Positions 6,981-48,308 of a DNA stretch of 64,000 nucleotides are shown one piece after another. The DNA is taken from the NCBI GenBank assembly GCA_949152475.1, contig OX424561.1, forward strand, positions 1,116,001 to 1,180,000. The letters are read 5' to 3'. Each line of letters starts with the position of its first letter. The stretch's first letter is position 1. Made by a program: the position numbers and the translations under genes. The stretch is from Terebella lapidaria. Its lineage: Eukaryota > Annelida > Polychaeta > Terebellida > Terebellidae. A model generated the notes under the pieces. That model did not search any database. It saw only the letters and a list, made by a program, of their open reading frames with translations, and had not been told where the DNA came from.

Positions 6981-6988
6981 AGTTACAG

Positions 6989-9900: not shown

Positions 9901-12900
9901 GACAGTAAAGTCTCAGACTTGACGAAGGCACAACTGGAGTACATCGTGAAAGCTAATGAGAGATACCTACGGACCTTCTTCCAGGGAAAGGTTGGTTCTT
10001 TGAGCACTGTAAAACAGAATGTAGGACAGTTTCAGACAGTGTTGTGATGTGGCAATGGAGGCTGACACAGTATGTTTAAAAAGCTATTTCAAGAGATGAA
10101 TCATTTTGAGACTTGGAGCCAGTCTGATTAAGGCATTTCGGCGGAAATGTCTTTATGGTTTTGTCATAATTCTTCGGGGTTTTTTTCTGCCATTTTCGTT
10201 TCCATGCGATAACTCAAGATCGCCTCGATGGATCGACTTTTTCACTACTGTTCAGACATTATGTAGATGTGCTGTATAGTTTTTGAGCTGGATCCAAGGT
10301 CCATGAGGATGAAATCATGGTCAATTTTTGGACTTCGTTTCCGTGCAATAACTCAAAAACTATTCAGACAATGGCTGCAAAAATTTGCATGGAGGTTCAT
10401 ATATCACCAGAGAACAATCTTATCGATTTTGGGGTCATATGGTCAAATGATTTCGCTGAGTCATCCTTGAAGCTATTTTACATATCTCGGAAACCGTGTG
10501 TCGTAGAGCAAAATGGATGTTGTTTTTGGACTTGTCTCCCTGAACAAACATTTTTGGAGTATTAGGGATGAACTTGGACCTTGACCTTAAATTTTCTCAA
10601 GTCGGCATTTTTCATTTTCAGCGATTTCTCGGAAAAGGTGCATCGTAGAGCAAAGCGGATGTTATTTCCGGAGTTGTCGTCCTAGACAAACATGTCTAAG
10701 GGGTATTAGGGTTGACCTTGATCTTAAATTCTTTCGCTGAGTCAGCATTCTTCGTTTTCATAGATATCTCGGAAACAGTGACTCCTCGCACTGGACAAAC
10801 ATGTCTAAGGGGTATTAGGGATGACCTTTGACCTTGATCTCAAATTTTCCTACATTTTTCGTTTTGTCGAAATCTCGGAAACAGTGCTTCATAGAGTGAA
10901 ACGGACATTATTTTCAGACTCGTCACCCTAGATTAACATGTCTCAGGGGTATTGGAGATGACCTTTGACCTTGATCTTAAAGTTTTTCGCTGAGTCAACA
11001 TTTTTCATTTTCGGCGATATCTCGGAAATGGTGAGTCAGAGAGCAAAACGGATGTTATTTTCGGACTCGTCTATGGGGTATTAGGGACCTTTTGACCTTG
11101 ACCTTAAATTTGACTTGTAATATCATTGGTCGCCATATTGACTTTTGACATTGACCTTCATTTTCATCGATATCTCGGAAACGATGGATCACAGAATGAC
11201 ACAGGCCTTTACGCAGCATTTTGTCATTCTAGCAAACATATTATAAATGTTCTGAGTTAGTCTCTACACCGAAATGCGTCCAAGGCATCTTTAGGCCTTG
11301 ATGCCTAGTTTGGTTTGACTTCATGTTTGATCATCATGTTTGAATTTTTCAGGCATACTGCAGACGGCATGAAGACTACAAGAAAGGAGGACAAAAACGA
11401 GGTAAATGACATTCTTGACCAAGTTAACTTTATGATTGAACGCCCTATCTGACAGTTATCATGTTCAACAGTACAGCTGGCGTGGCAGGTGTCCCTTGTG
11501 TACAATACTCACTGTTAAACAGTCACTAGTTAGGCATCCCGATTGAAAATCGGGAGGCCTTATGTTTTTGTCTGTTTTTTTTTTCTTTTTTTTTTTTTTT
11601 TTTTTTTTCTTCCGCCGTTCGGTTTCCGGATCATAACTCTTGAACGCCTTAATCTATCTTTCCGAAATTTTCACAGCTCATCCGAAATACTTTGCTCCTA
11701 ACCCCTATTGTTTTTCGTCGAGACCCGAAATCCAAGATGGCCGCCAGCGGCCATTTTGGAAAAAAAAATCGGGCGATTCCTGTCAATGTCATAATTTGAT
11801 TCAGGCAATTTCCAGGGGGAAAAAATTTTTTGGGTGTATTTTTTTTTGGACTTAGAATTTTTCCCTCGCCTGCCCCCATGCAGATGTAATACTGTGACTG
11901 AGCCATGCTACTGTATTCACTGACTGCAGCCTGCATGTCCAGCATGAGGCTAGGCTCTGCCCTCTCAGCCAGTGCAGTATATGAGAGCCCTGCTCAGTAA
12001 TGCTTGTGATAAGGCAATACCCCCCCCCCCCCTCTCTCCCTCCCCCACCTCCACTGTCAGCCAGTCTAATCTGCATATGAATGTAGCAATGTATCAGTGA
12101 CTTGTATGCACTGCCCCTCTTCCCCCCCTCCCCCCCCCCCCCTCTCCTGTCCCCTCACCCCAGTTTACTATACTAACACCAACAAGTTGGAACAATGCCC
12201 TCCTTCCCTTTCTAAAGAAAACAATAGGTGGTTATATAATGATGACCCAAACTGAAGATAACAGCTTTGAAGGTCTGCCTGGGCCTTGGTTGCCGGTCAA
12301 TTGTTCATTGTATTCAGTTAAAACAGCACTGTGTTTATCTGGATGAAACTACATGCATTGCTTTGTTTTCTAGCTGTATTTCACATGCAGTGACCAAATT
12401 GTCATTGTTTTACTTAGCCAGAACTCAGAATAATTTCCTTTTTGCTTGTATTATGAATGTCTGTCATGTCTGTACATTTAATACCTATTGAGATTAAAAC
12501 AAATATCTGATGGACATTTGTCTAGTGAGCAACTGCTATAATTTGAACTCTCACTCCCACCTGTGTTCAATAATCCTGGTATATGTATTATAATAACAGT
12601 CAAGTTTCACCATTAGAAAAGAAAAGAAAAATTGGGGGATGCCACAAAGCCTATAGGCTTTTATGTCTAGTTGTAATATCATTGGACGCCCTATCTGACA
12701 GTTATCATGTTCTACAGTACAGCTGGCGTGGCAGGTGTCCCTTGTGTACAATACTCACTGTTAAACAGTCACTAGTTCTAATATCATTGGATGCCCTATC
12801 TGACAGTTATCATGTTCTACAGTACAGCTGGCGTGGCAGGTGCCCCTTGTGTACAATACTCACTGTTAAACAGTCACTAGTTGTAATATCATTGGACGCC

Positions 12901-15900
12901 CTATCTGACAGTTATCATGTTCTACAGTACAGCTGGCGTGGCAGGTGCCCCTTGTGTACAATACTCACTGTTAAACAGTCACTAGTTGTAATATCATTGG
13001 ACGCCCTATCTGACAGTTATCATGTTCTACAGTACAGCTGGCGTGGCAGGTGTCCCTTGTGTACAATACTCACTGTTAAACAGTCACTAGTTGTAATATC
13101 ATTGGACGCCCTATCTGACAGTTATCATGTTCTACAGTACAGCTGGCGTGGCAGGTGTCCCTTGTGTACAATACTCACTGTTAAACAGTCACTAGTTGTA
13201 ATATCATTGGACGCCCTATCTGACAGTTATCATGTTCTACAGTACAGCTGGCGTGGCAGGTGTCCCTTGTGTACAATACTCACTGTTAAACAGTCACTAG
13301 TTGTAATATCATTGGACGCCCTATCTGACAGTTATCATGTTCTACAGTACAGCTGGCGTGGCAGGTGTCCCTTGTGTACAATACTCACTGTTAAACAGTC
13401 ACTAGTGGGTTGAAATGACCAATTATTGTCTGTATTTAAATCAATGTTAAATTGGGCAACTTCGGGTGTGCGTTTCACCTTTCCAAAAAAAAATTAGGGC
13501 TTAACGATTGACAGGGTGTGATAGTATAATCATAGTACTTCAATAAAATCTAGGTCACTATAGAGCATGATAGTACCAATTTTTCATAAAACGACGTTGA
13601 ACAGGACCCCTGTCAATTTAGCTCGTTTTCAGATCGCAATTGCCGACATAGCATACATTCAGCAAAACCTTTCTCTACTCCAAATCCCGGGGAATACCAT
13701 CGGAATTTTTGCTTTTCCCAAAACCAGACTTCCACACGCGCAAAATAAACCAGCACGTGGATCAATATCGCTTCGCGTTGTCTCCCTAGGCAACCATACA
13801 TCTGGCGAAATGACGTCACTTAAAACGGAATCCTCAATGTGTGAGGCATCCCCAGGTCTATTCCTGGCTTCCACCCTTCATATATAAGATATTGTGAATA
13901 GAGACTTGATACTCTACTATGAGGTAGAGTGACATATGGCCAGTCAGGACATAAAATATCTACTTCATATCTCATTGCGTTCTCATGTAACAGCACAATT
14001 CATACCGGTACCCCCTAGTGCTGAAAATCACCAATGGAGCACTATATCAAACGTTTATTGTTCAACAGCCAATTGAGTTTTCCTAAGATATGTTTCAAAT
14101 TTTCAGGATTGATACATGATGTGATTGCAATTAGCACTGTATACAATTTGGTGAAATATTTCTTAGCTGAGTAACATTATTTTGAACAAATTCTAACGAA
14201 AAATACATATTAATTCAAAAAGAAACGCAATATATTGTTTGTGAAGCATAGCAAAAACTACAAAAACTTGCAAAAACCAGCTTATTAGGTTTTAAGCAAC
14301 TGATATTTATGATGTAGATGCACACTGTAAGGTCCAGTGCTATATCCACGCGACGAGGCATGCTATTCATGAGTCTCGGATGCGCCGCCAGGCCGACCCA
14401 TTTTTGGTCAATTGCAACCTCGGGGCGGGGGGGGGGGGGGGGGGGGTGTTCCACAGTGTGTGGGCTCTCAGTCGGCCTCGAGTAAATCCTGTATAATGAT
14501 AATTTTTATTTCGTACACAAATTTGTACACATAGTTACATATTTCTTCCAATAAGTGTGGAAGACAATTTCTCAATCATTGCCGTCAGTGTATTTAACAT
14601 GTAATTTTCCATTTCCCTTGGAGCCCAGCCAAACATGCCAAAATATTCTTTAATTTGTATTAAATATATTCAGTGGTCACACAATTAATCATTTCATGCC
14701 TTTTCAAGTATCCTGATGCATGAAAAAATAAATTTCTGTGATTCCTTAAGGGTTGAAATGACCAATTATTGTCTGCATTTAAATCAATGTTAAATTGGGC
14801 AACTTCGGGTGTGCGTTTCACCTTTCCAAAAAAAAATTAGGGCTTAACGGTTGACAGGGTGTGATAGTATAATCATAGTACTTCAATAAAATCTAGGTCA
14901 CTATAGAGCATGATAGTACCAATTTTTCATAAAACGACGTTGAACAGGACCCCTGTCAATTTAGCTCGTTTTCAGATCGCAATTGCCGACATAGCATACA
15001 TTCAGCAAAACCTTTCTCTACTCCAAATCCCGGGGAATACCATCGGAATTTTTGCTTTTCCCAAAACCAGACTTCCACACGCGCAAAATAAACCAGCACG
15101 TGGATCAATATCGCTTCGCGTTGTCTCCCTAGGCAACCATACATCTGGCGAAATGACGTCACTTAAAACGGAATCCTCAATGTGTGAGGCATCCCCAGGT
15201 CTATTCCTGGCTTCCACCCTAGTTGTAATATCATTGAACGCCCTATCTGACAGTTATCATGTTCTACAGTACAGCTGGCATGGCAGGTGTCCCTTGTGTA
15301 CAATACTCACTGTTAAACAGTCACTAGTTGTAATATCATTGGACGCCCTATCTGACAGTTATCATGTTCTACAGTACAGCTGGCATGGCAGGTGTCCCTT
15401 GTGTACAATACTCACTGTTAAACAGTCACTAGTTGTAATATCATTGGACGCCCTATCTGACAGTTATCATGTTCTACAGTACAGCTGGCGTGGCAGGTGT
15501 CCCTTGTGTACAATACTCACTGTTACATAGTCACTAGTTGTAATATCATTGGACGCCCTATCTGACAGTTATCATGTTCTACAGTACAGCTGGCGTGGCA
15601 GGTGTCCCTTGTGTACAATACTCACTGTTAAACAGTCACTAGTTGTAATATCATTGGACGCCCTATCTGACAGTTATCATGTTCTACAGTACAGCTGGCG
15701 TGGCAGGTGTCCCTTGTGTACAATACTCACTGTTAAACAGTCACTAGTTGTAATATCATTGGACGCCCTATCTGACAGTTATCATGTTCTACAGTACAGC
15801 TGGCGTGGCAGGTGCCCCTTGTGTACAATACTCACTGTTAAACAGTCACTAGTTGTAATATCATTGGACGCCCTATCTGACAGTTATCATGTTCTACAGT

Positions 15901-18900
15901 ACAGCTGGCGTGGCAGGTGTCCCTTGTGTACAATACTCACTGTTAAACAGTCACTAGTTGTAATATCATTGGACGCCCTATCTGACAGTTATCATGTTCT
16001 ACAGTACAGCTGGCATGGCAGGTGCCCCTTGTGTACAATACTCACTGTTAAACAGTCACTAGTTGTAATATCATTGGACGCCCTATCTGACAGTTATCAT
16101 GTTCTACAGTACAGCTGGCATGGCAGGTGTCCCTTGTGTACAATAATCACTGTTAAACAGTCACTAGTTGTAATATCATTGGACGCCCTATCTGACAGTT
16201 ATCATGTTCTACAGTACAGCTGGCGTGGCAGGTGTCCCTTGTGTACAATACTCACTGTTAAACAGTCACTAGTTGTAATATCATTGGACGCCCTATCTGA
16301 CAGTTATCATGTTCTACAGTACAGCTGGCATGGCAGGTGTCCCTTGTGTACAATACTCACTGTTAAACAGTCACTAGTTGTAATATCATTGGACGCCCTA
16401 TCTGACAGTTATCATGTTCTACAGTACAGCTGGCGTGGCAGGTGTCCCTTGTGTACAATACTCACTGTTAAACAGTCACTAGTTGTAATATCATAGGACG
16501 CCCTATCTGACAGTTATCATGTTCTACAGTACAGCTGGCGTGGCAGGTGTCCCTTGTGTACAATACTCACTGTTAAACAGTCACTAGTTGTAATATCATT
16601 GGACGCCCTATCTGACAGTTATCATGTTCTACAGTACAGCTGGCGTGGCAGGTGTCCCTTGTGTACAATACTCACTGTTAAACAGTCACTAGTTGTAATA
16701 TCATTGGACGCCCTATCTGACAGTTATCATGTTCTACAGTACAGCTGGCGTGGCAGGTGTCCCTTGTGTACAATACTCACTGTTAAACAGTCACTAGTTG
16801 TAATATCATTGGACGCCCTATCTGACAGTTATCATGTTCTACAGTACAGCTGGCGTGGCAGGTGTCCCTTGTGTACAATACTCACTGTTAAACAGTCACT
16901 AGTTGTAATATCATTGGACGCCCTATCTGACAGTTATCATGTTCTACAGTACAGCTGGCATGGCAGGTGCCCCTTGTGTACAATACTCACTGTTAAACAG
17001 TCACTAGTTGTAATATCATTGGACGCCCTATCTGACAGTTATCATGTTGTTCTATAGTACAGCTGGCGTGGCAGGTGCCCCTTGTGTACAATACTCACTG
17101 TTGAACAGTCACTAGTTGTAATATCATTGGACGCCCTATCTGACAGTTATCATGTTCTACAGTACAGCTGGCATGGCAGGTGTCCCTTGTGTACAATACT
17201 CACTGTTAAACAGTCACTAGTTGTAATATCATTGGACGCCCTATCTGACAGTTATCATGTTGTTCTACAGTACAGCTGGCGTGGCAGGTGTCCCTTGTGT
17301 ACAATACTCACTGTTAAACAGTCACTAGTTGTAATATCATTGGACGCCCTATCTGACAGTTATGTTCTACAGTACAGCTGGCATGGCAGGTGTCCCTTGT
17401 GTACAATACTCACTGTTAAACAGTCACTAGTTGTAATATCATTGGACGCCCTATCTGACAGTTATCATGTTCTACAGTACAGCTGGCATGGCAGGTGTCC
17501 CTTGTGTACAATACTCACTGTTAAACAGTCACTAGTTGTAATATCATTGGACGCCCTATCTGACAGTTATGTTCTACAGTACAGCTGGCGTGGCAGGTGT
17601 CCCTTGTGTACAATACTCACTGTTAAACAGTCACTAGTTGTAATATCATTGGACGCCCTATCTGACAGTTATGTTCTACAGTACAGCTGGCATGGCAGGT
17701 GTCCCTTGTGTACAATACTCACTGTTAAACAGTCACTAGTTGTAATATCATTGGACGCCCTATCTGACAGTTATCATGTTCTACAGTACAGCTGGCATGG
17801 CAGGTGTCCCTTGTGTGCAATACTCACTGTTAAACAGTCACTAGTTGTAATATCATTGGACGCCCTATCTGACAGTTATCATGTTCTACAGTACAGCTGG
17901 CGTGGCAGGTGTCCCTTGTGTACAATACTCACTGTTAAACAGTCACTAGTTGTAATATCATTGAACGCCCTATCTGACAGTTATCATGTTCTACAGTACA
18001 GCTGGCGTGGCAGGTGTCCCTTGTGTACAATACTCACTGTTAAACAGTCACTAGTTGTAATATCATTGGACGCCCTATCTGACAGTTATCATGTTCTACA
18101 GTACAGCTGGCGTGGCAGGTGCCCCTTGTGTACAATACTCACTGTTAAACAGTCACTAGTTGTAATATCATTGGACGCCCTATCTGACAGTTATCATGTT
18201 CTACAGTACAGCTGGCGTGGCAGGTGTCCCTTGTGTACAATACTCACTGTTAAACAGTCACTAGTTGTAATATCATTGGACGCCCTATCTGACAGTTATC
18301 ATGTTCTACAGTACAGCTGGCATGGCAGGTGTCCCTTGTGTACAATACTCACTGTTAAACAGTCACTAGTTGTAATATCATTGGACGCCCTATCTGACAG
18401 TTATCATGTTCTACAGTACAGCTGGCGTGGCAGGTGCCCCTTGTGTACAATACTCACTGTTAAACAGTCACTAGTTGTAATATCATTGGACGCACTATCT
18501 GACAGTTATCATGTTCTACAGTACAGCTGGCGTGGCAGGTGCCCCTTGTGTACAATACTCACTGTTAAACAGTCACTAGTTGTAATATCATTGGATGCCC
18601 TATCTGACAGTTATCATGTTCTACAGTACAGCTGGCGTGGCAGGTGTCCCTTGTGTACAATACTCACTGTTAAACAGTCACTAGTTGTAATATCATTGGA
18701 CGCCCTATCTGACAGTTATCGTGTTCTACAGTACAGCTGGCGTGGCAGGTGTCCCTTGTGTACAATACTCACTGTTAAACAGTCACTAGTTGTAATATCA
18801 TTGGACGCCCTATCTGACAGTTATCATGTTCTACAGTACAGCTGGCGTGGCAGGTGTCCCTTGTGTACAATACTCACTGTTAAACAGTCACTAGTTGTAA

Positions 18901-21900
18901 TATCATTGAACGCTCTATCTGACAGTTATCATGTTCTACAGTACAGCTGGCGTGGCAGGTGTCCCTTGTGTACAATACTCACTGTTAAACAGTCACTAGT
19001 TGTAATATCATTGGACGCCCTATCTGACAGTTATCATGTTCTACAGTACAGCTGGCGTGGCAGGTGTCCCTTGTGTACAATACTCACTGTTAAACAGTCA
19101 CTAGTTGTAATATCATTGGACACCCTATCTGACAGTTATGTTGTTCTACAGTACAGCTGGCATGGCAGGTGCCCCTTGTGTACAATACTCACTGTAACAG
19201 TGAGTATTAAACAGTCACTAGTTGTAATATCATTGGACGCCCTATCTGACAGTTATCATGTTCTACAGTACAGCTGGCGTGGCAGGTGCCCCTTGTGTAC
19301 AATACTCACTGTTAAACAGTCACTAGTTGTAATATCATTGGACGCACTATCTGACAGTTATCATGTTCTACAGTACAGCTGGCGTGGCAGGTGTCCCTTG
19401 TGTACAATACTCACTGTTAAACAGTCACTAGTTGTAATATCATTGGACACCCTATCTGACAGTTATCATGTTGTTCTACAGTACAGCTGGCGTGGCAGGT
19501 GTCCCTTGTGTACAATACTCACTGTTAAACAGTCACTAGTTGTAATATCATTGGACGCCCTATCTGACAGTTATCATGTTCTACAGTACAGCTGGCGTGG
19601 CAGGTGTCCCTTGTGTACAATACTCACTGTTAAACAGTCACTAGTTGTAATATCATTGAACGCCCTATCTGACAGTTATCATGTTCTACAGTACAGCTGG
19701 CGTGGCAGGTGTCCCTTGTGTACAATACTCACTGTTAAACAGTCACTAGTTGTAATATCATTGGACGCCCTATCTGACAGTTATCATGTTCTACAGTACA
19801 GCTGGCGTGGCAGGTGCCCCTTGTGTACAATACTCACTGTTAAACAGTCACTAGTTGTAATATCATTGGACGCACTATCTGACAGTTATCATGTTCTACA
19901 GTACAGCTGGCGTGGCAGGTGTCCCTTGTGTACAATACTCACTGTTAAACAGTCACTAGTTGTAATATCATTGGACACCCTATCTGACAGTTATCATGTT
20001 GTTCTACAGTACAGCTGGCATGGCAGGTGCCCCTTGTGTACAATACTCACTGTTAAACAGTCACTAGTTGTAATATCATTGGACGCCCTATCTGACAGTT
20101 ATCATGTTCTACAGTACAGCTGGCGTGGCAGGTGCCCCTTGTGTACAATACTCACTGTTAAACAGTCACTAGTTGTAATATCATTGGACGCCCTATCTGA
20201 CAGTTATCATGTTTTACAGTACAGCTGGCGTGGCAGGTGTCCCTTGTGTACAATACTCACTGTTAAACAGTCACTAGTTGTAATATCATTGGACGCCCTA
20301 TCTGACAGTTATCATGTTCTACAGTACAGCTGGCGTGGCAGGTGTCCCTTGTGTACAATACTCACTGTTAAACAGTCACTAGTTGTAATATCATTGGACG
20401 CCCTATCTGACAGTTATCATGTTCTACAGTACAGCTGGCATGGCAGGTGTCCCTTGTGTACAATACTCACTGTTAAACAGTCACTAGTTGTAATATCATT
20501 GGACGCCCTATCTGACAGTTATCATGTTTTACAGTACAGCTGGCGTGGCAGGTGTCCCTTGTGTACAATACTCACTGTTACATAGTCTCTAGTTGTAATA
20601 TCATTGGACGCCCTATCTGACAGTTATCATGTTCTACAGTACAGCTGGCGTGGCAGGTGTCCCTTGTGTACAATACTCACTGTTAAACAGTCACTAGTTG
20701 TAATATCATTGCACGCCCTATCTGACAGTTATCATGTTCTACAGTACAGCTGGCGTGGCAGGTGTCCCTTGTGTACAATACTCACTGTTAAACAGTCACT
20801 AGTTGTAATATCATTGGACGCCCTATCTGACAGTTATCATGTTGTTCTACAGTACAGCTGGCATGGCAGGTGTCCCTTGTGTACAATACTCACTGTTAAA
20901 CAGTCACTAGTTGTAATATCATTGCACGCCCTATCTGACAGTTATCATGTTGTTCTACAGTACAGCTGGCGTGGCAGGTGTCCCTTGTGTACAATACTCA
21001 CTGTTAAACAGTCACTAGTTGTAATATCATTGGACGCCCTATCTGACAGTTATCATGTTCTACAGTACAGCTGGCGTGGCAGGTGTCCCTTGTGTACAAT
21101 ACTCACTGTTAAACAGTCACTAGTTGTAATATCATTGCACGCCCTATCTGACAGTTATCATGTTGTTCTACAGTACAGCTGGCGTGGCAGGTGTCCCTTG
21201 TGTACAATACTCACTGTTAAACAGTCACTAGTTGTAATATCATTGCACGCCCTATCTGACAGTTATCATGTTGTTCTACAGTACAGCTGGCGTGGCAGGT
21301 GTCCCTTGTGTACAATACTCACTGTTAAACAGTCACTAGTTGTAATATCATTGGACGCCCTATCTGACAGTTATCATGTTGTTCTACAGTACAGCTGGCG
21401 TGGCAGGTGTCCCTTGTGTACAATACTCACTGTTAAACAGTCACTAGTTGTAATATCATTGGACGCCCTATCTGACAGTTATCATGTTCTACACTACAGC
21501 TGGCGTGGCAGGTGTCCCATGTGTACAATACTCACTGTTAAACAGTCACTAGTTGTAATATCATTGGACGCCCTATCTGACAGTTATCATGTTCTACAGT
21601 ACAGCTGGCGTGGCAGGTGTCCCATGTGTACAATACTCACTGTTAAACAGTCACTAGTTGTAATATCATTGGACGCCCTATCTGACAGTTATCATGTTCT
21701 ACAGTACAGCTGGCGTGGCAGGTGCCCCTTGTGTACAATACTCACTGTTAAACAGTCACTAGTTGTAATATCATTGGACGCCCTATCTGACAGTTATCAT
21801 GTTCTACAGTACAGCTGGCGTGGCAGGTGTCCCTTGTGTACAATACTCACTGTTAAACAGTCACTAGTTGTAATATCATTGGACGCCCTATCTGACAGTT

Positions 21901-36900: not shown

Positions 36901-39900
36901 ATCATGTTGTTCTACAGTACAGCTGGCGTGGCAGGTGCCCCTTGTGTACAATACTCACTGTTAAACAGTCACTAGTTGTAATATCATTGGACGCCCTATC
37001 TGACAGTTATCATGTTCTACAGTACAGCTGGCGTGGCAGGTGCCCCTTGTGTACAATACTCACCGTTAAACAGTCACTAGTTGTAATATCATTGGACGCC
37101 CTATCTGACAGTTATCATGTTGTTCTACAGTACAGCTGGCGTGGCAGGTGTCCCTTGTGTACAATACTCACTGTTAAACAGTCACTAGTTGTAATATCAT
37201 TGGACGCCCTATCTGACAGTTATCATGTTGTTCTACAGTACAGCTGGCGTGGCAGGTGTCCCTTGTGTACAATACTCACTGTTAAACAGTCACTAGTTGT
37301 AATATCATTGGACGCCCTATCTGACAGTTATCATGTTCTACAGTACAGCTGGCGTGGCAGGTGCCCCTTGTGTACAATACTCACTGTTAAACAGTCACTA
37401 GTTGTAATATCATTGGACGCCCTATCTGACAGTTATCATGTTGTTCTACAGTACAGCTGGCGTGGCAGGTGTCCCTTGTGTACAATACTCACTGTTAAAC
37501 AGTCACTAGTTGTAATATCATTGGACGCCCTATCTGACAGTTATCATGTTCTACAGTACAGCTGGCGTGGCAGGTGTCCCTTGTGTACAATACTCACTGT
37601 TAAACAGTCACTAGTTGTAATATCATTGGACGCCCTATCTGACAGTTATCACGTTCTACAGTACAGCTGGCGTGGCAGGTGCCCCTTGTGTACAATACTC
37701 ACCGTTAAACAGTCACTAGTTGTAATATCATTGGACGCCCTATCTGACAGTTATCATGTTGTTCTACAGTACAGCTGGCGTGGCAGGTGTCCCTTGTGTA
37801 CAATACTCACTGTTAAACAGTCACTAGTTGTAATATCATTGGACGCCCTATCTGACAGTTATCATGTTCTACAGTACAGCTGGCGTGGCAGGTGTCCCTT
37901 GTGTACAATACTCACTGTTAAACAGTCACTAGTTGTAATATCATTGGACGCCCTATCTGACAGTTATCATGTTGTTCTACAGTACAGCTGGCGTGGCAGG
38001 TGTCCCTTGTGTACAATACTCACTGTTAAACAGTCACTAGTTGTAATATCATTGGACGCCCTATCTGACAGTTATCATGTTGTTCTACAGTACAGCTGGC
38101 GTGGCAGGTGTCCCTTGTGTACAATACTCACTGTTAAACAGTCACTAGTTGTAATATCATTGGACGCCCTATCTGACAGTTATCATGTTCTACAGTACAG
38201 CTGGCGTGGCAGGTGTCCCTTGTGTACAATACTCACTGTTAAACAGTCACTAGTTGTAATATCATTGGACGCCCTATCTGACAGTTATCATGTTCTACAG
38301 TACAGCTGGCGTGGCAGGTGTCCCTTGTGTACAATACTCACTGTTAAACAGTCACTAGTTGTAATATCATTGGACGCCCTATCTGACAGTTATCATGTTC
38401 TACAGTACAGCTGGCGTGGCAGGTGCCCCTTGTGTACAATACTCACTGTTAAACAGTCACTAGTTGTAATATCATTGGACGCCCTATCTGACAGTTATCA
38501 TGTTCTACAGTACAGCTGGCGTGGCAGGTGCCCCTTGTGTACAATACTCACCGTTAAACAGTCACTAGTTGTAATATCATTGGACGCCCTATCTGACAGT
38601 TATCATGTTGTTCTACAGTACAGCTGGCGTGGCAGGTGTCCCTTGTGTACAATACTCACTGTTAAACAGTCACTAGTTGTAATATCATTGGACGCCCTAT
38701 CTGTCAGTTATCATGTTCTACAGTACAGCTGGCGTGGCAGGTGTCCCTTGTGTACAATACTCACTGTTAAACAGTCACTAGTTGTAATATCATTGGACGC
38801 CCTATCTGACAGTTATCATGTTGTTCTACAGTACAGCTGGCGTGGCAGGTGTCCCTTGTGTACAATACTCACTGTTAAACAGTCACTAGTTGTAATATCA
38901 TTGGACGCCCTATCTTACAGTTATCATGTTCTACAGTACAGCTGGCGTGGCAGGTGTCCCTTGTGTACAATACTCACTGTTAAACAGTCACTAGTTGTAA
39001 TATCATTGGACGCCCTATCTGACAGTTATCATGTTCTACAGTACAGCTGGCGTGGCAGGTGTCCCTTGTGTACAATACTCACTGTTAAACAGTCACTAGT
39101 TGTAATATCATTGGACGCCCTATCTGACAGTTATCATGTTGTTCTACAGTACAGCTGGCGTGGCAGGTGCCCCTTGTGTACAATACTCACTGTTAAACAG
39201 TCACTAGTTGTAATATCATTGGACGCCCTATCTGACAGTTATCATGTTCTACAGTACAGCTGGTGTGGCAGGTGCCCCTTGTGTACAATACTCACTGTTA
39301 AACAGTCACTAGTTGTAATATCATTGGACGCCCTATCTGACAGTTATCATGTTCTACAGTACAGCTGGCGTGGCAGGTGTCCCTTGTGTACAATACTCAC
39401 TGTTAAACAGTCACTAGTTGTAATATCATTGGACGCCCTATCTGACAGTTATCATGTTCTACAGTACAGCTGGCGTGGCAGGTGTCCCTTGTGTACAATA
39501 CTCACTGTTAAACAGTCACTAGTTGTAATATCATTGGACGCCCTATCTGACAGTTATCATGTTCTACAGTACAGCTGGCGTAGCAGGTGTCCCTTGTGTA
39601 CAATACTCACTGTTAAACAGTCACTAGTTGTAATATCATTGGACGCCCTATCTGACAGTTATCACGTTGTTCTACAGTACAGCTGGCATGACAGGTGTCC
39701 CTTGTGTACAATACTCACTGTTAAACAGTCACTAGTTGTAATATCATTGGACGCCCTATCTGACAGTTATCATGTTCTACAGTACAGCTGGCGTGGCAGG
39801 TGTCCCTTGTGTACAATACTCACTGTTAAACAGTCACTAGTTGTAATATCATTGGACGCCCTATCTGACAGTTATCATGTTCTACAGTACAGCTGGCGTG

Positions 39901-42900
39901 GCAGGTGTCCCTTGTGTACAATACTCACTGTTAAACAGTCACTAGTTGTAATATCATTGGACGCCCTATCTGACAGTTATCATGTTCTACAGTACAGCTG
40001 GCATGGCAGGTGTCCCTTGTGTACAATACTCACTGTTAAACAGTCACTAGTTGTAATATCATTGGACGCCCTATCTTAGTTATCATGTTCTACAGTACAG
40101 CTGGCGTGGCAGGTGTCCCTTGTGTACAATACTCACTGTTAAACAGTCACTAGTTGTAATATCATTGGACGCCCTATCTTAGTTATCATGTTCTACAGTA
40201 CAGCTGGCGTGGCAGGTGCCCCTTGTGTACAATACTCACTGTTAAACAGTCACTAGTTGTAATATCATTGGACGCCCTATCTGACAGTTATCATGTTGTT
40301 CTACAGTACAGCTGGCGTGGCAGGTGTCCCTTGTGTACAATACTCACTGTTAAACAGTCACTAGTTGTAATATCATTGGACGCCCTATCTTACAGTTATC
40401 ATGTTCTACAGTACAGCTGGCGTGGCAGGTGTCCCTTGTGTACAATACTCACTGTTAAACAGTCACTAGTTGTAATATCATTGGACGCCCTATCTGACAG
40501 TTATCATGTTCTACAGTACAGCTGGCGTGGCAGGTGTCCCTTGTGTACAATACTCACTGTTAAACAGTCACTAGTTGTAATATCATTGGACGCCCTATCT
40601 GACAGTTATCATGTTCTACAGTACAGCTGGCGTGGCAGGTGTCCCTTGTGTACAATACTCACTGTTAAACAGTCACTAGTTGTAATATCATTGGACGCCC
40701 TATCTGACAGTTATTATGTTCTACAGTACAGCTGGTGTGGCAGGTGCCCCTTGTGTACAATACTCACTGTTAAACAGTCACTAGTTGTAATATCATTGGA
40801 CGCCCTATCTTACAGTTATCATGTTCTACAGTACAGCTGGCGTGGCAGGTGTCCCTTGTGTACAATACTCACTGTTAAACAGTCACTAGTTGTAATATCA
40901 TTGGACGCCCTATCTGACAGTTATCATGTTGTTCTACAGTACAGTTGGCGTGGCAGGTGTCCCTTGTGTACAATACTCACTGTTAAACAGTCACTAGTTG
41001 TAATATCATTGGACGCCCTATCTGACAGTTATCATGTTCTACAGTACAGCTGGCGTGGCAGGTGCCCCTTGTGTACAATACTCACTGTTAAACAGTCACT
41101 AGTTGTAATATCATTGGACGCCCTATCTGACAGTTATCATGTTCTACAGTACAGCTGGCGTGGCAGGTGCCCCATGTGTACAATACTCACTGTTAAACAG
41201 TCACTAGTTGTAATATCATTGGACGCCCTATCTGACAGTTATCATGTTCTACAGTACAGCTGGCGTGGCAGGTGTCCATTGTGTACAATACTCACTGTTA
41301 AACAGTCACTAGTTGTAATATCATTGGACGCCCTATCTGACAGTTATCATGTTCTACAGTACAGCTGGTGTGGCAGGTGTCCCTTGTGTACAATACTCAC
41401 TGTTAAACAGTCACTAGTTGTAATATCATTGGACGCCCTATCTGACAGTTATCATGTTCTACAGTACAGCTGGCGTGGCAGGTGTCCCTTGTGTACAATA
41501 CTCACTGTTAAACAGTCACTAGTTGTAATATCATTGGACGCCCTATCTGACAGTTATCATGTTCTACAGTACAGCTGGCGTGGCAGGTGCCCCTTGTGTA
41601 CAATACTCACTGTTAAACAGTCACTAGTTGTAATATCATTGGACGCCCTATCTGACAGTTATCATGTTCTACAGTACAGCTGGCGTGGCAGGTGCCCCTT
41701 GTGTACAATACTCACTGTTAAACAGTCACTAGTTGTAATATCATTGGACGCCCTATCTGACAGTTATCATGTTCTACAGTACAGCTGGCGTGGCAGGTGT
41801 CCCTTGTGTACAATACTCACTGTTAAACAGTCACTAGTTGTAATATCATTGGACGCCCTATCTGACAGTTATCACGTTGTTCTACAGTACAGCTGGCGTG
41901 GCAGGTGTCCCTTGTGTACAATACTCACTGTTAAACAGTCACTAGTTGTAATATCATTGGACGCCCTATCTGACAGTTATCATGTTCTACAGTACAGCTG
42001 GCGTGGCAGGTGTCCCTTGTGTACAATACTCACTGTTAAACAGTCACTAGTTGTAATATCATTGGACGCCCTATCTGACAGTTATCACGTTGTTCTACAG
42101 TACAGCTGGCGTGGCAGGTGTCCCTTGTGTACAATACTCACTGTTAAACAGTCACTAGTTGTAATATCATTGGACGCCCTATCTGACAGTTATCATGTTC
42201 TACAGTACAGCTGGCGTGGCAGGTGTCCCTTGTGTACAATACTCACTGTTAAACAGTCACTAGTTGTAATATCATTGGACGCCCTATCTGACAGTTATCA
42301 CGTTGTTCTACAGTACAGCTGGCGTGGCAGGTGTCCCTTGTGTACAATACTCACTGTTAAACAGTCACTAGTTGTAATATCATTGGACGCCCTATCTGAC
42401 AGTTATCATGTTCTACAGTACAGCTGGCGTGGCAGGTGCCCCTTGTGTACAATACTCACTGTTAAACAATCATTAGTTGTAATATCATTGGACGCCCTAT
42501 CTGACAGTTATCATGTTCTACAGTACAGCTGGCGTGGCAGGTGTCCCTTGTGTACAATACTCACTGTTAAACAGTCACTAGTTGTAATATCATTGGACGC
42601 CCTATCTGACAGTTATGTTCTACAGTACAGCTGGCGTAGCAGGTGTCCCTTGTGTACAATACTCACTGTTAAACAGTCACTAGTTGTAATATCATTGGAC
42701 GCCCTATCTGACAGTTATCATGTTCTACAGTACAGCTGGCGTGGCAGGTGTCCCTTGTGTACAATACTCACTGTTAAACAGTCACTAGTTGTAATATCAT
42801 TGAACGCCCTATCTGACAGTTATCATGTTCTACAGTACAGCTGGCATGGCAGGTGTCCCTTGTGTACAATACTCACTGTTAAACAGTCACTAGTTGTAAT

Positions 42901-45900
42901 ATCATTGGACGCCCTATCTGACAGTTATCATGTTCTACAGTACAGCTGGCGTGGCAGGTGCCCCTTGTGCACAATACTCACTGTTAAACAGTCACTAGTT
43001 GTAATATCATTGGACGCCCTATCTGACAGTTATCATGTTGTTCTACAGTACAGCTGGCGTAGCAGGTGTCCCTTGTGTACAATACTCACTGTTAAACAGT
43101 CACTAGTTGTAATATCATTGGACGCCCTATCTGACAGTTATCATGTTCTACAGTACAGCTGGCATGGCAGGTGTCCCTTGTGTACAATACTCACTGTTAA
43201 ACAGTCACTAGTTGTAATATCATTGGACGCCCTATCTGACAGTTATCATGTTCTACAGTACAGCTGGCGTGGCAGGTGCCCCTTGTGTACAATACTCACT
43301 GTTAAACAGTCACTAGTTGTAATATCATTGGACGCCCTATCTGACAGTTATCATGTTCTACAGTACAGCTGGCGTGGCAGGTGTCCCTTGTGTACAATAC
43401 TCACTGTTAAACAGTCACTAGTTGTAATATCATTGGACGCCCTATCTGACAGTTATCATGTTGTTCTACAGTACAGCTGGCGTAGCAGGTGTCCCTTGTG
43501 TACAATACTCACTGTTAAACAGTCACTAGTTGTAATATCATTGGACGCCCTATCTGACAGTTATCATGTTCTACAGTACAGCTGGCGTGGCAGGTGTCCC
43601 TTGTGTACAATACTCACTGTTAAACAGTCACTAGTTGTAATATCATTGGACGCCCTATCTGACAGTTATCATGTTCTACAGTACAGCTGGCGTGGCAGGT
43701 GTCCCTTGTGTACAATACTCACTGTTAAACAGTCACTAGTTGTAATATCATTGGACGCCCTATCTGACAGTTATCATGTTCTACAGTACAGCTGGCGTGG
43801 CAGGTGTCCCTTGTGTACAATACTCACTGTTAAACAGTCACTAGTTGTAATATCATTGGACGCCCTATCTGACAGTTATCACGTTGTTCTACAGTACAGC
43901 TGGCGTGGCAGGTGTCCCTTGTGTACAATACTCACTGTTAAACAGTCACTAGTTGTAATATCATTGGACGCCCTATCTGACAGTGATCATGTTCTACAGT
44001 ACAGCTGGCGTGGCAGGTGTCCCTTGTGTACAATACTCACTGTTAAACAGTCACTAGTTGTAATATCATTGGACGCCCTATCTGACAGTTATCATGTTCT
44101 ACAGTACAGCTGGCGTGGCAGGTGTCCCTTGTGTACAATACTCACTGTTAAACAGTCACTAGTTGTAATATCATTGGACGCCCTATCTGACAGTTATCAT
44201 GTTGTTCTACAGTACAGCTGGCGTGGCAGGTGTCCCTTGTGTACAATACTCACTGTTAAACAGTCACTAGTTGTAATATCATTGGACGCCCTATCTGACA
44301 GTTATCATGTTCTACAGTACAGCTGGCGTGGCAGGTGTCCTTCGTGTACAATACTCACTGTTAAACAGTCACTAGTTGTAATATCATTGGACGCCCTATC
44401 TGACAGTTATCATGTTCTACAGTACAGCTGGCGTGGCAGGTGCCCCTTGTGTACAATACTCACTGTTAAACAGTCACTAGTTGTAATATCATTGGACGCC
44501 CTATCTGACAGTTATCATGTTCTACAGTACAGCTGGCGTGGCAGGTGTCCCTTGTGTACAATACTCACTGTTAAACAGTCACTAGTTGTAATATCATTGG
44601 ACGCCCTATCTGACAGTTATCATGTTCTACAGTACAGCTGGCGTGGCAGGTGTCCCTTGTGTACAATACTCACTGTTAAACAGTCACTAGTTGTAATATC
44701 ATTGGACGCCCTATCTGACAGTTATCATGTTCTACAGTACAGCTGGCGTGGCAGGTGTCCCTTGTGTACAATACTCACTGTTAAACAGTCACTAGTTGTA
44801 ATATCATTGGACGCCCTATCTGACAGTTATCATGTTCTACAGTACAGCTGGCATGGCAGGTGTCCCTTGTGTACAATACTCACTGTTAAACAGTCACTAG
44901 TTGTAATATCATTGGACGCCCTATCTGACAGTTATCATGTTCTACAGTACAGCTGGCGTGGCAGGTGTCCCTTGTGTACAATACTCACTGTTAAACAGTC
45001 ACTAGTTGTAATATCATTGGACGCCCTATCTGACAGTTATCATGTTCTACAGTACAGCTGGCATGGCAGGTGTCCCTTGTGTACAATACTCACTGTTAAA
45101 CAGTCACTAGTTGTAATATCATTGGACGCCCTATCTGATAGTTATCATGTTCTACAGTACAGCTGGCATGGCAGGTGTCCCTTGTGTACAATACTCACTG
45201 TTAAACAGTCACTAGTTGTAATATCATTGGACGCCCTATCTGACAGTTATCATGTTCTACAGTACAGCTGGCGTGGCAGGTGTCCCTTGTGTACAATACT
45301 CACTGTTAAACAGTCACTAGTTGTAATATCATTGGACGCCCTATCTGACAGTTATCATGTTCTACAGTACAGCTGGCATGGCAGGTGTCCCTTGTGTACA
45401 ATACTCACTGTTAAACAGTCACTAGTTGTAATATCATTGGATGCCCTATCTGACAGTTATCATGTTCTACAGTACAGCTGGCGTGGCAGGTGCCCCTTGT
45501 GTACAATACTCACTGTTAAACAGTCACTAGTTGTAATATCATTGGACGCCCTATCTGACAGTTATCATGTTCTACAGTACAGCTGGCGTGGCAGGTGTCC
45601 CTTGTGTACAATACTCACTGTTAAACAGTCACTAGTTGTAATATCATTGGACGCCCTATCTGACAGTTATCATGTTCTACAGTACTGCTGGCGTGGCAGG
45701 TGTCCCTTGTGTACAATACTCACTGTTAAACAGTCACTAGTTGTAATATCATTGGACGCCCTATCTGACAGTTATCATGTTCTACAGTACAGCTGGCGTG
45801 GCAGGTGTCCCTTGTGTACAATACTCACTGTTAAACAGTCACTAGTTGTAATATCATTGGACACCCTATCTGACAGTTATCATGTTCTACAGTACAGCTG

Positions 45901-47595
45901 GCGTGGCAGGTGCCCCTTGTGTACAATACTCACTGTTAAACAGTCACTAGTTGTAATATCATTGGACACCCTATCTGACAGTTATCATGTTCTACAGTAC
46001 AGCTGGCGTGGCAGGTGCCCCTTGTGTACAATACTCACTGTTAAACAGTCACTAGTTGTAATATCATTGGACGCCCTATCTGACAGTTATCATGTTCTAC
46101 AGTACAGCTGGCGTAGCAGGTGCCCCTTGTGTACAATACTCACTGTTAAACAGTCACTAGTTGTAATATCATTGGACGCACTATCTGACAGTTATCATGT
46201 TCTACAGTACAGCTGGCGTGGCAGGTGTCCCTTGTGTACAATACTCACTGTTAAACAGTCACTAGTTGTAATATCATTGGACGCCCTATCTGACAGTTAT
46301 CATGTTCTACAGTACAGCTGGCGTGGCAGGTGTCCCTTGTGTACAATACTCACTGTTAAACAGTCACTAGTTGTAATATCATTGGACGCCCTATCTGACA
46401 GTTATCATGTTCTACAGTACAGCTGGCGTGGCAGGTGTCCCTTGTGTACAATACTCACTGTTAAACAGTCACTAGTTGTAATATCATTGGATGCCCTATC
46501 TGACAGTTATCATGTTGTTCTACAGTACAGCTGGCGTGGCAGGTGTCCCTTGTGTACAATACTCACTGTTAAACAGTCACTAGTTGTAATATCATTGGAC
46601 GCCCTATCTGACAGTTATCATGTTGTTCTACAGTACAGCTGGCGTGGCAGGTGTCCCTTGTGTACAATACTCACTGTTAAACAGTCACTAGTTGTAATAT
46701 CATTGGACGCCCTATCTGACAGTTATCATGTTCTACAGTACAGCTGGCGTGGCAGGTGTCCCTTGTGTACAATACTCACTGTTAAACAGTCACTAGTTGT
46801 AATATCATTGGACGCCCTATCTGACAGTTATCATGTTCTACAGTACAGCTGGCGTGGCAGGTGTCCCTTGTGTACAATACTCACTGTTAAACAGTCACTA
46901 GTTGTAATATCATTGGACGCCCTATCTGACAGTTATCATGTTCTACAGTACAGCTGGCATGGCAGGTGTCCCTTGTGTACAATACTCACTGTTAAACAGT
47001 CACTAGTTGTAATATCATTGGACGCCCTATCTGACAGTTATCATGTTCTACAGTACAGCTGGCGTGGCAGGTGTCCCTTGTGTACAATACCCACTGTTAA
47101 ACAGTCACTAGTTGTAATATCATTGGACGCCCTATCTGAAAGTTATCATGTTCTACAGTACAGCTGGCGTGGCAGGTGCCCCTCGCCTTGTTCCATGAGG
47201 ATCAGTGTGAACACATTCTCTTGGTGCTACACGGGATGTTTTGTAAAAACCACAACAAGGTCAGCATCAATCATATCACTTTCAGACAACAGTTATATCA
47301 TATGCTAATGGATGTACCTTCAGTAACATTATTCTTAAATGAATATTCTTGTGATGGAAATTTTTGGACATTCGGCTAATTGTATTGTTTGACAAGACTG
47401 TCTGTGCTCACTGTGATATGTCTGTAACTTTCCCGTACTTGATTTTAGTACCTGGACTATGTCCTGAAGGTGGCATTCCCCGAGGTGCTGATCAAAATCT
47501 ACATGGACGTTCATCGAGTGGAGCATGACCGAGCTGAGGACGACATGGCAGAAGCACTCAAAGACCCCGACAACCTGCCCATGTCCATGGCATAG
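6989..47595 (+). CDS. 5'-partial multi-exon gene, probable nuclear protein (MUM1/PWWP3-like C-terminus, tentative)
   Basis: Ten exons with GT-AG junctions and matching phases: 6989-7042, 7200-7329, 7436-7537, 7738-7829, 8099-8217, 8309-9793, 9906-9990, 11353-11401, 47159-47259 and 47449-47595 (TAG). They give 787 codons plus stop; earlier exons lie outside the window. The N-terminal part is basic (RRRAYRRNRQARK). The long sixth exon is acidic and Ser-rich with KR clusters, consistent with a disordered nuclear region. The last exons are helical and contain KYLDYVLKVAFPEVLIKIY followed by a VxxxxAE pattern. From memory this resembles the C-terminal domain after the PWWP domain in MUM1/PWWP3 proteins; no PWWP domain is seen here. 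The eighth intron is 35,757 nt and almost entirely satellite. Coding status is firm, the family name is weak. Confidence 0.8.
8309..9793 (+). CDS. Large internal exon encoding an acidic low-complexity region
   Basis: This 1,485-nt exon enters in phase 2 and leaves in phase 2. The donor GTCAG|GTCTGT at 9794 joins the acceptor at 9905 to give an uninterrupted frame, although the exon frame itself stays open to a TAA at 9824. The protein is rich in Ser, Asp, Glu and Thr. It contains two related acidic motifs, DLSFSDTDD and DLSFSEDED, about 75 residues apart, a basic patch EPRKRKAEPHKRQ that could be a nuclear localisation signal, and a second patch RKSRRISNSP. A short direct repeat (DSEAMDSEAMDA) is also visible. 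No catalytic domain is recognised. Confidence 0.85.
10129..11309 (+). mobile_element. Helentron-like non-autonomous element (HINE), copy 2
   Basis: It lies in the intron between exons 9906-9990 and 11353-11401. The 5' end TAAGGCATTTCGG can fold with the following GGAAATGTCTTTA. The same terminal motif is repeated inverted near the 3' end (ACCGAAATGCG), followed by a hairpin CAAGGCATCTTTAGGCCTTG and then CCTAGT. The interior has six to seven degenerate units with ATCTCGGAAA, AGAGCAAAACGGATGTTATTTTC and GACCTTTGACCTTGA. They are more divergent than those in copies 1, 4 and 5, so this looks like an older insertion. No coding capacity is visible. Confidence 0.65.
11434..11530 (+). repeat. First, most divergent unit of the 105-bp intron-exon-junction satellite
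   Basis: This unit starts only 33 bp after the donor at 11402. It carries the pseudo-acceptor TTCAACAG ending at 11471, followed by TACAGCTGGCGTGGCAGGTG, the same sequence that opens the real exon at 47159. If used, this acceptor would make a 70-nt intron. The reading frame would then reach TAA (in TGTTAAACAG) within 16 codons. It differs from the array consensus at several intronic positions (TTTATGATTGAACGCC against AATATCATTGGACGCC), as expected for an array edge or ancestral copy. Confidence 0.85.
11531..12671 (+). mobile_element. Helentron-like element, divergent subfamily, inside the 105-bp satellite
   Basis: Flanks CACTAGT and TGTAATATC rejoin to the exact satellite sequence, which gives a clean empty site. 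The 5' end is TAGGCATCCCGATTG and folds with AATCGGGAGGCC. The 3' end has GGGGGATGCC, then a hairpin AAGCCTATAGGCTTT and GTCTAGT. So the terminal motif has changed from GGCATTTCGG to GGCATCCC and its inverted partner has changed with it. The 5' region shares poly-T and 'GGTTTCCGGATCATAACTC' with the other copies, but the 115-bp tandem units are absent. The interior has C-rich tracts near 12021 and 12125, and an inverted pair CCAAGATGGCCGC/GCGGCCATTTTGG at about 11732-11760. No long open frame. Confidence 0.6.
12672..13406 (+). repeat. 105-bp junction satellite, seven units
   Basis: Seven near-identical 105-bp units (735 bp) lie between the Helentron-like element and the terminal-repeat element. 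Each carries the intron-like stretch GGACGCCCTATCTGACAG, the acceptor TGTTCTACAG, an exon-like TACAGCTGGCGTGGCAGGTG and the tail TACTCACTGTTAAACAGTC. The block continues the array that starts at 11434. Confidence 0.97.
13407..15218. mobile_element. Terminal-direct-repeat element, TRIM-like (short LTR-retrotransposon kin), inserted in the satellite
   Basis: Two 469-bp direct repeats (13407-13875 and 14750-15218) flank an 874-bp interior. The two repeats are about 99.5% identical, which implies a recent insertion. The satellite motif CTAGT is present immediately on both sides (13402-13406 and 15219-15223), consistent with a 5-bp target duplication. Ends are GGGTTGAA and TTCCACC, an imperfect inverted pair. 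No gag, pol or other recognisable gene is present, so the element is non-autonomous. The lack of canonical TG...CA ends and of a clear purine tract leaves open that it is a duplicated MITE-like unit. Confidence 0.5.
15219..30214 (+). repeat. 105-bp junction satellite, main block A
   Basis: About 142 head-to-tail units. Length variants are 102 bp (missing CAT before GTTCTACAG), 105 bp and 108 bp (extra GTT giving ATGTTGTTCTACAG). Because these differ by multiples of three, one forward frame stays open for thousands of codons as a 35-residue repeat (LDALSDSYHVLQYSWRGRCP and following). Frame breaks recur at GTTACATAGTC (near 15525, 20578, 25129 and 28731). The unit contains no spacers and no clear gene. 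Every unit holds a TTCTACAG acceptor and 25 nt matching the start of exon 47159. Confidence 0.97.
17777..26878 (+). repeat. 4551-bp higher-order tandem duplication inside the 105-bp satellite
   Basis: Rare variants recur at a constant offset of 4551 bp: TTGTGTGCAA at 17817 and 22368, the 12-bp insertion GTAACAGTGAGTATTA near 19192 and 23743, CATAGTCTCTAG near 20580 and 25131, and paired CCCATGTGTAC variants near 21516 and 26067. The series of D/N/H and R/H unit variants is identical over this span and diverges outside it. A block of about 43 units was therefore copied once in tandem, with edges near 17780, 22330 and 26880. It could also be an assembly duplication. Confidence 0.9.
30215..32301. 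mobile_element. piggyBac-like non-autonomous DNA transposon (TTAA target)
   Basis: The 2,087-bp insert interrupts a satellite unit at TTAA. TTAA is present on both sides (30211-30214 and 32302-32305), while intact units have it once in CTGTTAAACAG. The ends are perfect 13-bp inverted repeats, CTCTTTACCTGCC and GGCAGGTAAAGAG. ACGTCA-type motifs recur just inside both ends (TTACGTCATTGAC, TGACGTTTTTGGG; ACACGTCAATGG, ACGTCACTGAGG). TTAA duplication with C/T-rich ends is the piggyBac pattern. The longest open frames are short and resemble no transposase, so it must have been mobilised in trans. Confidence 0.85.
32302..47183 (+). repeat. 105-bp junction satellite, main block B, ending in the real exon
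   Basis: About 140 further units after the TTAA element. The 108-bp GTTGTT variant is frequent here. Two adjacent units near 40075 and 40180 share a 2-bp loss that shifts the open frame. The last unit (from about 47104) keeps the acceptor TTCTACAG at 47151-47158. It then passes from repeat into unique coding sequence after TACAGCTGGCGTGGCAGGTG plus CCCCT, so the array's right edge is about 25 nt inside exon 47159-47259. Confidence 0.97.
47159..47595 (+). CDS. Last two coding exons of the MUM1/PWWP3-like gene
   Basis: Exon 47159-47259 enters with two bases that complete a Val codon with the G ending exon 11353-11401. It encodes QLAWQVPLALFHEDQCEHI and following residues up to NHNK, and leaves in phase 0 at AAG|GTCAGC. 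Exon 47449-47595 follows TTTTAG and encodes YLDYVLKVAFPEVLIKIYMD, then VHRVEHDRAEDDM, ending MSMA and TAG. The first 25 nt of exon 47159 are the same sequence found in every satellite unit of the preceding intron, while the rest of both exons is unique. Confidence 0.85.
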
Positions 47596-48206: not shown

Positions 48207-48308
48207 CCACAATATCACATATCCATCAGAACATGTCTGGTTGACACTGTCACCAGCCCACAATATCACATATCCATCAGAACATGTCTGGTTGACACTG
48301 TCACCAGC
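48207..48308 (-). repeat. 51-bp tandem duplication spanning the receptor stop codon
   Basis: Two nearly perfect 51-bp copies (48207-48257 and 48258-48308), each with ACAATATCACATATCCATC and GTTGACACTGTCACCAGC. The copy nearer the gene contains the receptor stop codon (TGA, 48303-48301); the other copy lies in the 3' UTR. The period is a multiple of three. Confidence 0.9.

What the first reader, a model, noticed from the sequence alone, without database searches (positions are those of the whole stretch)
11402..47259. A 35.8-kb intron made of about 290 copies of its own 3' splice site plus the start of the next exon
The 105-bp satellite unit contains the intron end (CTATCTGACAGTTATCATG, TTCTACAG) and 25 nt identical to the start of exon 47159. 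The first copy lies 33 bp after the donor and the last copy runs into the real exon, so the intron appears to have grown from a mini-intron of about 70 nt by repeated tandem duplication across its acceptor. Every copy keeps an intact acceptor, so splicing must skip about 290 equal decoys. Use of any decoy reaches a TAA within 16 codons and would remove the conserved C-terminus. The unit also contains GGCAG|GTG, which could act as a donor and make a 17-nt microexon. It may be a splicing-timer or isoform switch, or a tolerated burden.
Basis: partly seen in the sequence, partly recalled or inferred. Interest (0 to 1): 0.88.

Follow-up and report, generated by a model that had tools for sequence, protein, structure and literature searches.

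The report
Giant splice-acceptor minisatellite ("mirage") fills intron
A tiny intron in an animal gene appears to have grown to 35.8 kb because its end, together with the first letters of the next exon, was copied in tandem about 290 times; this is a very large example of the "mirage" minisatellites already described in lancelets, and it poses a clear question of how splicing still finds the true site.

Summary
Between donor 11402 and acceptor 47159 lie 290 decoy copies of a roughly 105-bp unit holding the intron's own 3' end plus about 25 nt of the next exon; 287 of 290 keep the AG, and all 290 meet an in-frame stop within 29 codons. Three mobile-element-like inserts (about 5 kb) interrupt the array. 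On a recalled matrix all 287 AG-bearing decoys score at least as well as the true acceptor. The kind is known: 'mirage' minisatellites of amphioxus genes, reported not to disturb splicing. New is the scale (291 copies against 2-7 where I saw numbers) and the pair of in-frame and out-of-frame arrays. A timer or isoform switch has no support. No transcripts were available; a lancelet host is likely, not shown; a perfect 4,550-bp duplication in the array needs long reads.

The parts
11353..11401 (+). exon upstream of the giant intron (ends in phase 1, ...GGQKR|G)
   Evidence: frame and splice consensus fit over ten exons from 6989 to the stop codon at 47593-47595
11402..47158 (+). 35,757-nt intron, donor GAG|GTAAAT, acceptor TTCTACAG|TAC
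11402..11471 (+). donor-proximal 70 nt: inferred remnant of the ancestral mini-intron, ending in decoy acceptor 1 (TTCAACAG)
11434..11533 (+). first array copy; 5 differences to the consensus in the 100 nt compared, two of them at the very end where the insert begins
11534..12666 (+). mobile-element insertion, rolling-circle (Helentron)-like: hairpin then CTAG at its 3' end, inserted in CTAGT|T
   Evidence: read by eye, family label recalled
12667..13406 (+). array block, 7 copies
13407..15218 (+). TRIM/LTR-like insertion: direct terminal repeats aligned over 471 positions (2 differences), CTAGT at both sides
   Evidence: family label recalled
15219..30214 (+). array block
17782..22331 (+). 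4,550 bp repeated without a difference at 22333-26882 (lag 43 units; recent exchange or assembly duplication)
30215..32303 (+). piggyBac-like insertion: TTAA on both sides, terminal inverted repeats CTCTTTACCTGCC / GGCAGGTAAAGAG
   Evidence: family label recalled
32304..47183 (+). array block; last copy (CTGAAAG) carries the genuine acceptor and runs 25 nt into the exon
47159..47259 (+). real exon VQLAWQVPLALFHEDQCEHILLVLHGMFCKNHNK; its first 25 nt are in the array unit
47449..47595 (+). last coding exon to its stop codon
   Evidence: joined 127 aa match PF20886 (E 0.0006, 20.2 bits, below the cut-off of 27)
50228..50670 (-). second mirage: 443-nt intron of a delta-like glutamate-receptor gene; four decoy acceptors, exon-like starts at 50575, 50488, 50401, 50314
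50137..50227 (-). real exon of the receptor (TYTLSRVPDGQFGGIKDDGNWTGMVGQLQRK), first 17 nt in the 87-bp unit; decoys stay in frame and add 29 aa per unit

Best explanation
This is a giant 'mirage' minisatellite. A duplication took in the last part of a roughly 70-nt intron and the first 25 nt of the following exon, with about 34 nt of filler of unknown source, and the unit then multiplied by unequal exchange and segmental duplication to about 290 copies; three mobile elements later landed inside. Shown from sequence: structure, homogeneity, a large perfect duplication (if the assembly is right), insertions. Inferred: the gene still works because splicing joins 11401 to 47159, most simply through exon definition, since only the last acceptor is followed by a full exon with a fair donor (47259, 101 nt on), whereas each decoy is followed by about 25 nt of exon and mostly weak donors. 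The array is neutral or mildly costly, not a regulatory device.
For: Copy count, spacing and borders; left homology to the donor-proximal intron; phases and frame continuous across the intron; PF20886 scores 20.2 bits on the joined 127 aa against 14.8 on the downstream part alone, none on the upstream part alone and none on the decoy product (15.4 bits on the whole 787 aa; all below the cut-off of 27). Second acceptor-spanning array in the neighbouring gene; of 13 acceptors tested 2 have copies within 3 kb upstream, of 11 donors none within 3 kb (ungapped 35-nt windows). No sign of selection in the unit. Of 3446 GT sites in the array outside the inserts none reaches the real exon's donor score of 3.32 (best 3.305, in four copies; recalled matrix). 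Published mirages in lancelet Adh3, globin, TnC and PGBD5 genes: Adh3 data and globin RT-PCR are said to suggest that regular splicing is not disturbed, and Adh and TnC mirages are said to give no aberrant mRNAs.
Against: No RNA evidence here. On recalled matrices all 287 AG-bearing decoys score at least as well as the true acceptor (lowest decoy -2.46, true -2.47), and decoy 1 would give a 70-nt intron, so strict intron definition predicts truncation. CTG|GTGTGG in four copies (3.305 bits) nearly equals the real donor, one GT inside the piggyBac-like insert exceeds it (3.62 at 32294), and this gene's other donors go as low as -1.42 bits, so 'no donors in the array' is only relative. The Pfam support for the join is below the curated cut-off. 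The filler has no known source. The host is not identified.
Confidence: 0.77

Rival explanations
1. Splicing timer or copy-number-dependent isoform switch: decoy use yields a truncated protein (through nonsense-mediated decay or loss of the C-terminus), and array length or transcription time sets the ratio.
For: 287 decoys with AG, all scoring at least as well as the real site; 284 of 290 decoys stop within 16 codons and all 290 within 29. The true site alone reads CTGAAAG.
Against: Substitution types per site are similar in acceptor (0.48), exon (0.40), filler (0.38) and left parts (0.43), so no sign of constraint on the acceptors; the neighbouring array gives in-frame products instead; published mirages are reported not to disturb splicing.
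Confidence: 0.07
2. Leaky burden: decoys, mainly the first copies, are used often and a good part of transcripts is wasted, but the gene tolerates it.
For: Intron-definition logic: decoy 1 gives a 70-nt intron with a CTGAC branch-point-like motif; decoy scores.
Against: Statements on known mirages; where I saw copy numbers they are small, so they do not settle it for 290.
Confidence: 0.2
3. Assembly inflation: a real but much shorter array, lengthened by misassembly.
For: A 4,550-bp stretch is repeated without a single difference at lag 4551; at a lag of 43 units, 42 units in a row are identical.
Against: 80 distinct units among 287, and three different insertions each flanked by array on both sides are landmarks through the array; the next longest run of identical units at any lag is 5.
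Confidence: 0.15
4. The unit was spread by a rolling-circle (Helentron-like) element that captured the splice boundary, its end being the hairpin plus CTAG in the filler.
For: The filler ends ACTGTTAAACAGT-CACTAG|TT, like a rolling-circle 3' end (recalled); elements that look so are in the window, and one copy in the upstream intron holds TTGTAATATCATTGGTCGCCATAT, 22 of 24 like the unit. Oyster Helentrons carry satellite-like arrays (PMC7492417, search listing only).
Against: The filler matches neither the inserts nor the rest of the window better than shuffles; no element ends flank the array, which ends in the exon itself.
Confidence: 0.08

Closest known systems
Amphioxus 'mirage' minisatellites (Adh3, BflGb6, BflGb9, TnC, PGBD5)
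   Same: Tandem repeats spanning an intron/exon boundary, with AG/GT splice signals in many copies beside the authentic exon (PMC3087553 section 16; PMC3902484 passages).
   Different: Copy numbers that I saw: 6 and 3 (BflGb6 haplotypes), a duplicate (BflGb9), 2 or 7 and 3 or 6 (PGBD5, two assemblies); those of Adh3 and TnC were not seen. Here 291 copies, 35.8 kb, invaded by three mobile elements.
Human 6-16/IFI6 minisatellite with multiple splice donor sites (Turri, Cuin and Porter 1995; not held, seen only as a citation and in one introduction)
   Same: A minisatellite whose unit is a splice site.
   Different: Donor side, short unit (recalled: 12 nt), and repeat units are used as alternative donors; here the acceptor side with a 105-bp unit.
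[quoted passage not shown] potato RdRp, PMC4974935 abstract and results section)
   Same: A duplication crossing the 3' splice site; AGGT is present in the unit here (CAGGT in 290 of 291 copies).
   Different: In potato one duplication created a new intron that is spliced; here an old intron grew and no new exon is evident.

Membership tests
mirage minisatellite | tandem unit spans an intron-exon boundary (splice site plus exon start) | tested here: met
   second case
mirage minisatellite | authentic boundary lies beside the repeats and the intact exon follows it (my reading of the unit names in PMC3087553, not stated in so many words) | tested here: met
   the terminal copy runs into the intact exon
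mirage minisatellite | inner copies homogenised, border copies excluded | tested here: inconclusive
   units differ from the consensus by 0.84 substitutions on average; first copy 5 of 100, two of these at the insert border, last copy 2 of 77: in the expected direction but small
mirage minisatellite | regular splicing of the mRNA despite the decoys | not testable with these tools
   no transcript data held
mirage minisatellite | length polymorphism, somatic instability | not testable with these tools
   one haplotype only; a perfect 43-unit duplication hints at recent change
mirage minisatellite | host is a cephalochordate (all examples seen) | tested here: inconclusive
   no genome held; the receptor gene is nearest to delta-1 among solved structures, a class described as poorly represented in molluscs and not found in the annelids, arthropods and nematodes studied (PMC6307864 passages)
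IFI6-type donor minisatellite | unit contains the real exon's donor | tested here: not met
   unit holds the acceptor; 0 of 11 donors tested have copies within 3 kb
Helentron-carried satellite array | array flanked by element ends | tested here: not met
   array ends in the donor-proximal intron and in the exon; an element lies inside it, not around it
intron gain by tandem duplication | a new intron created and spliced | not testable with these tools
   no transcript data; frame analysis suggests one enlarged old intron

The most novel reading that the evidence does not exclude
The array is a copy-number-tuned splicing device: the spliceosome meets 287 acceptors as good as or better than the true one, and the number of units, unstable between individuals and cells, sets how much full-length against truncated protein is made.
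Probability: 0.06. Interest if true: 0.88.

Novelty: new member of a known kind. Interest (0 to 1): 0.5.

Why it matters
It is a natural test of 3' splice-site choice: 287 decoys score at least as well as the true site (recalled matrix), which differs mainly in what follows it. Together with the neighbouring in-frame array (29 aa per unit), it lets exon definition, order of emergence and site strength be separated with one cDNA data set. It also suggests that mirage minisatellites can grow into satellite-sized introns, and gives a concrete route from mini-intron to giant intron.

Tried and rejected
Structural masking of decoys: the consensus unit folds with its arms around the acceptor (z -0.79), and the real site is more open than all 58 sampled decoys (58 of 290) in the polypyrimidine and branch regions in two of three window sizes (57 and 56 of 58 in the third). 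But for the one decoy controlled, flank-shuffled versions were no more open (137 of 200 at or below the observed value); the nine other real acceptors of the gene are less open than the decoy mean (9 of 9 in two window sizes, 8 of 9 in the third); and the AG difference disappears with the longest window (real 0.35, decoy mean 0.38). Not claimed.

Coding use of the array (one frame is open over most copies): stop-making substitution types 2 against 2.08 expected, synonymous 14 against 12.67, over the 219 units of 105 bp; rejected. In the gene's own frame new stops are 5 against 2.10, small numbers. Types per site are even over the unit, but their occurrences are not (exon part 4.08 per site, filler 0.62, left 1.62, acceptor 1.11), because some variants such as base 21 have spread. 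Four of the five unit lengths are multiples of 3; too few independent events to weigh.

Filler derived from the rest of exon 47159: score 18, p 0.084 against shuffles; filler from elsewhere outside the array or in the inserts: no better than shuffles.

The true acceptor's -2.47 lies inside the range of the gene's nine other acceptors (-4.44 to 3.17).

Prokaryote and viral collections do not hold the unit core (exact pattern); Rfam (gathering threshold) and tRNA scans gave nothing. The taxon could not be fixed.

Papers that report an acceptor array of this size: none that I could recognise from titles and abstract starts in the listings (no papers; 12 of 33 shown); open-licence library only. 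Amphioxus VCBP and huntingtin papers and a human tandem-repeat paper were seen in passages only: no comparable array in those passages.

Full report
What is there. On the + strand a gene runs from at least 6989 to the stop codon at 47593-47595, with ten exons in consistent frame; exons before 6989 are outside the window. Its C-terminal 127 residues match Pfam PF20886 (C-terminal domain of PWWP3A/B) at E 0.0006 and 20.2 bits, below the curated cut-off of 27, in one alignment (residues 11-111) across the giant intron; the downstream part alone scores 14.8, the upstream part and the decoy product nothing; the whole 787 aa score 15.4. An upstream part of 179 aa matches UPF0492 (PF15744) at 24.5 bits, also below its cut-off of 27, though the whole protein did not list it. 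The gene's name is therefore tentative. The exons at 11353-11401 and 47159-47259 are separated by 35,757 nt.

The array. The intron holds 290 decoy copies, besides the real one, of a unit of 105 bp (219 of 287 complete units; 60 are 108, 4 are 102, 2 are 117, 2 are 103), with 80 distinct sequences among 287. Each unit has a left part, the intron end with CTGAC and TTCTACAG, 25 nt of exon start, and a filler of about 34 nt. The 219 units of 105 bp differ pairwise by 1.54 bases on average. AG is kept in 288 of 291, CAGGT in 290, CTGAC in 282. Joined to exon 11353-11401, all 290 decoys meet a stop: 13 at the 5th codon, 271 at the 16th, 2 at the 20th, 4 at the 29th.

Origin. The first copy starts about 33 nt after the donor; there the intron is homologous to the unit's left part (score 23, 0 of 500 shuffles). 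From donor to first acceptor is 70 nt. The simplest history is a mini-intron whose end and exon start were duplicated. One duplication of 4,550 bp inside the array is perfect (17782-22331 repeated at 22333-26882), which shows large-segment exchange or an assembly fault. Identical neighbouring units are little commoner than chance (42 of 286 at lag 1, about 34 expected from the chance rate 0.118; 65 of 244 at lag 43). Three insertions interrupt the array: a Helentron-like element, a TRIM-like element whose terminal repeats differ at 2 of 471 aligned places, and a piggyBac-like element at TTAA (labels by resemblance). So the array predates these insertions, and the TRIM-like one looks young.

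A second case. On the - strand a glutamate-receptor gene (best solved relative delta-1, E 1e-50) has a 443-nt intron with four decoy acceptors before the real one, all 87 nt apart; the unit is intron end plus the first 17 nt of the exon, and three copies, the real one included, are identical over 87 nt. Here all four decoys keep the frame and add 29 residues per unit. Of 13 acceptors tested, 2 have copies within 3 kb upstream; of 11 donors, none within 3 kb.

Selection. The 44 substitution types among the 219 units of 105 bp are spread evenly over acceptor, exon, filler and left parts (0.48, 0.40, 0.38, 0.43 per site; their occurrences are uneven because a few variants have spread), and stop-making changes in the open frame equal expectation (2 against 2.08). 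I see no constraint that a regulatory role would predict.

How splicing could cope. Site strength therefore does not mark the real site. What marks it is the full exon and its donor at 47259 (3.32 bits); none of 3446 GT sites in the array outside the inserts reaches that, although CTG|GTGTGG in four copies reaches 3.305, one GT in an insert reaches 3.62, and weaker donors are used elsewhere in this gene. Exon definition is the best-supported guess; it is inference. RNA masking of decoys was tested and not supported.

Comparison. [quoted passage not shown] Adh3 data and globin RT-PCR are said to suggest undisturbed splicing, and length and somatic instability are reported (PMC3087553, section 16 read). 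PGBD5 (60 and 108 bp; 2 or 7 and 3 or 6 units in two assemblies) and TnC are further cases (PMC3902484, passages). This finding fits that kind by anatomy; splicing and instability could not be tested, and the host is not fixed. It exceeds the largest copy number that I saw (7) some forty-fold; numbers for Adh3 and TnC were not seen. The acceptor-side duplication in potato RdRp (PMC4974935, abstract and results) and the donor minisatellite of IFI6 (citations and one introduction) are cousins.

Verdict. A real, extreme member of a known kind; valuable as a test bed for splice-site choice, not evidence of a new regulatory device.

Noticed in passing
50137-50670, - strand: A second acceptor-spanning tandem array (87 bp x 5) in a delta-like glutamate-receptor gene; decoys stay in frame and would add 29 aa per unit in the ligand-binding region.
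   Followed up: yes
1-6985: A 49-bp satellite (34.7 and 64 copies, split by a Helentron-like insert of about 2.2 kb) lies before exon 6989, probably in its intron, and ends just before the CAG of that acceptor, 3 nt before the exon; the unit itself does not include the AG or exon.
   Followed up: partly
11115-11138: TTGTAATATCATTGGTCGCCATAT in the preceding intron, inside a Helentron-like copy, matches the left part of the array unit (22 of 24); direction of transfer unknown.
   Followed up: partly
17782-26882: A 4,550-bp block of the array is repeated head to tail without any difference: very recent exchange or an assembly duplication.
   Followed up: partly
about 1700-3861, 10130-11315, 11534-12666: Helentron-like elements (subterminal hairpin, CTAG end, insertion at TT, asymmetric inverted ends), some with internal tandem repeats around ATATCTCGGAAACGG; borders read by eye, labels recalled.
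   Followed up: partly
48207-48308, - strand: A perfect 51-bp tandem duplication covering the stop codon of what looks like the receptor's last coding exon (ORF 48301-48690).
   Followed up: no
11402-47158: Both the TRIM-like and the Helentron-like element inserted at the same CTAGT of the unit.
   Followed up: no
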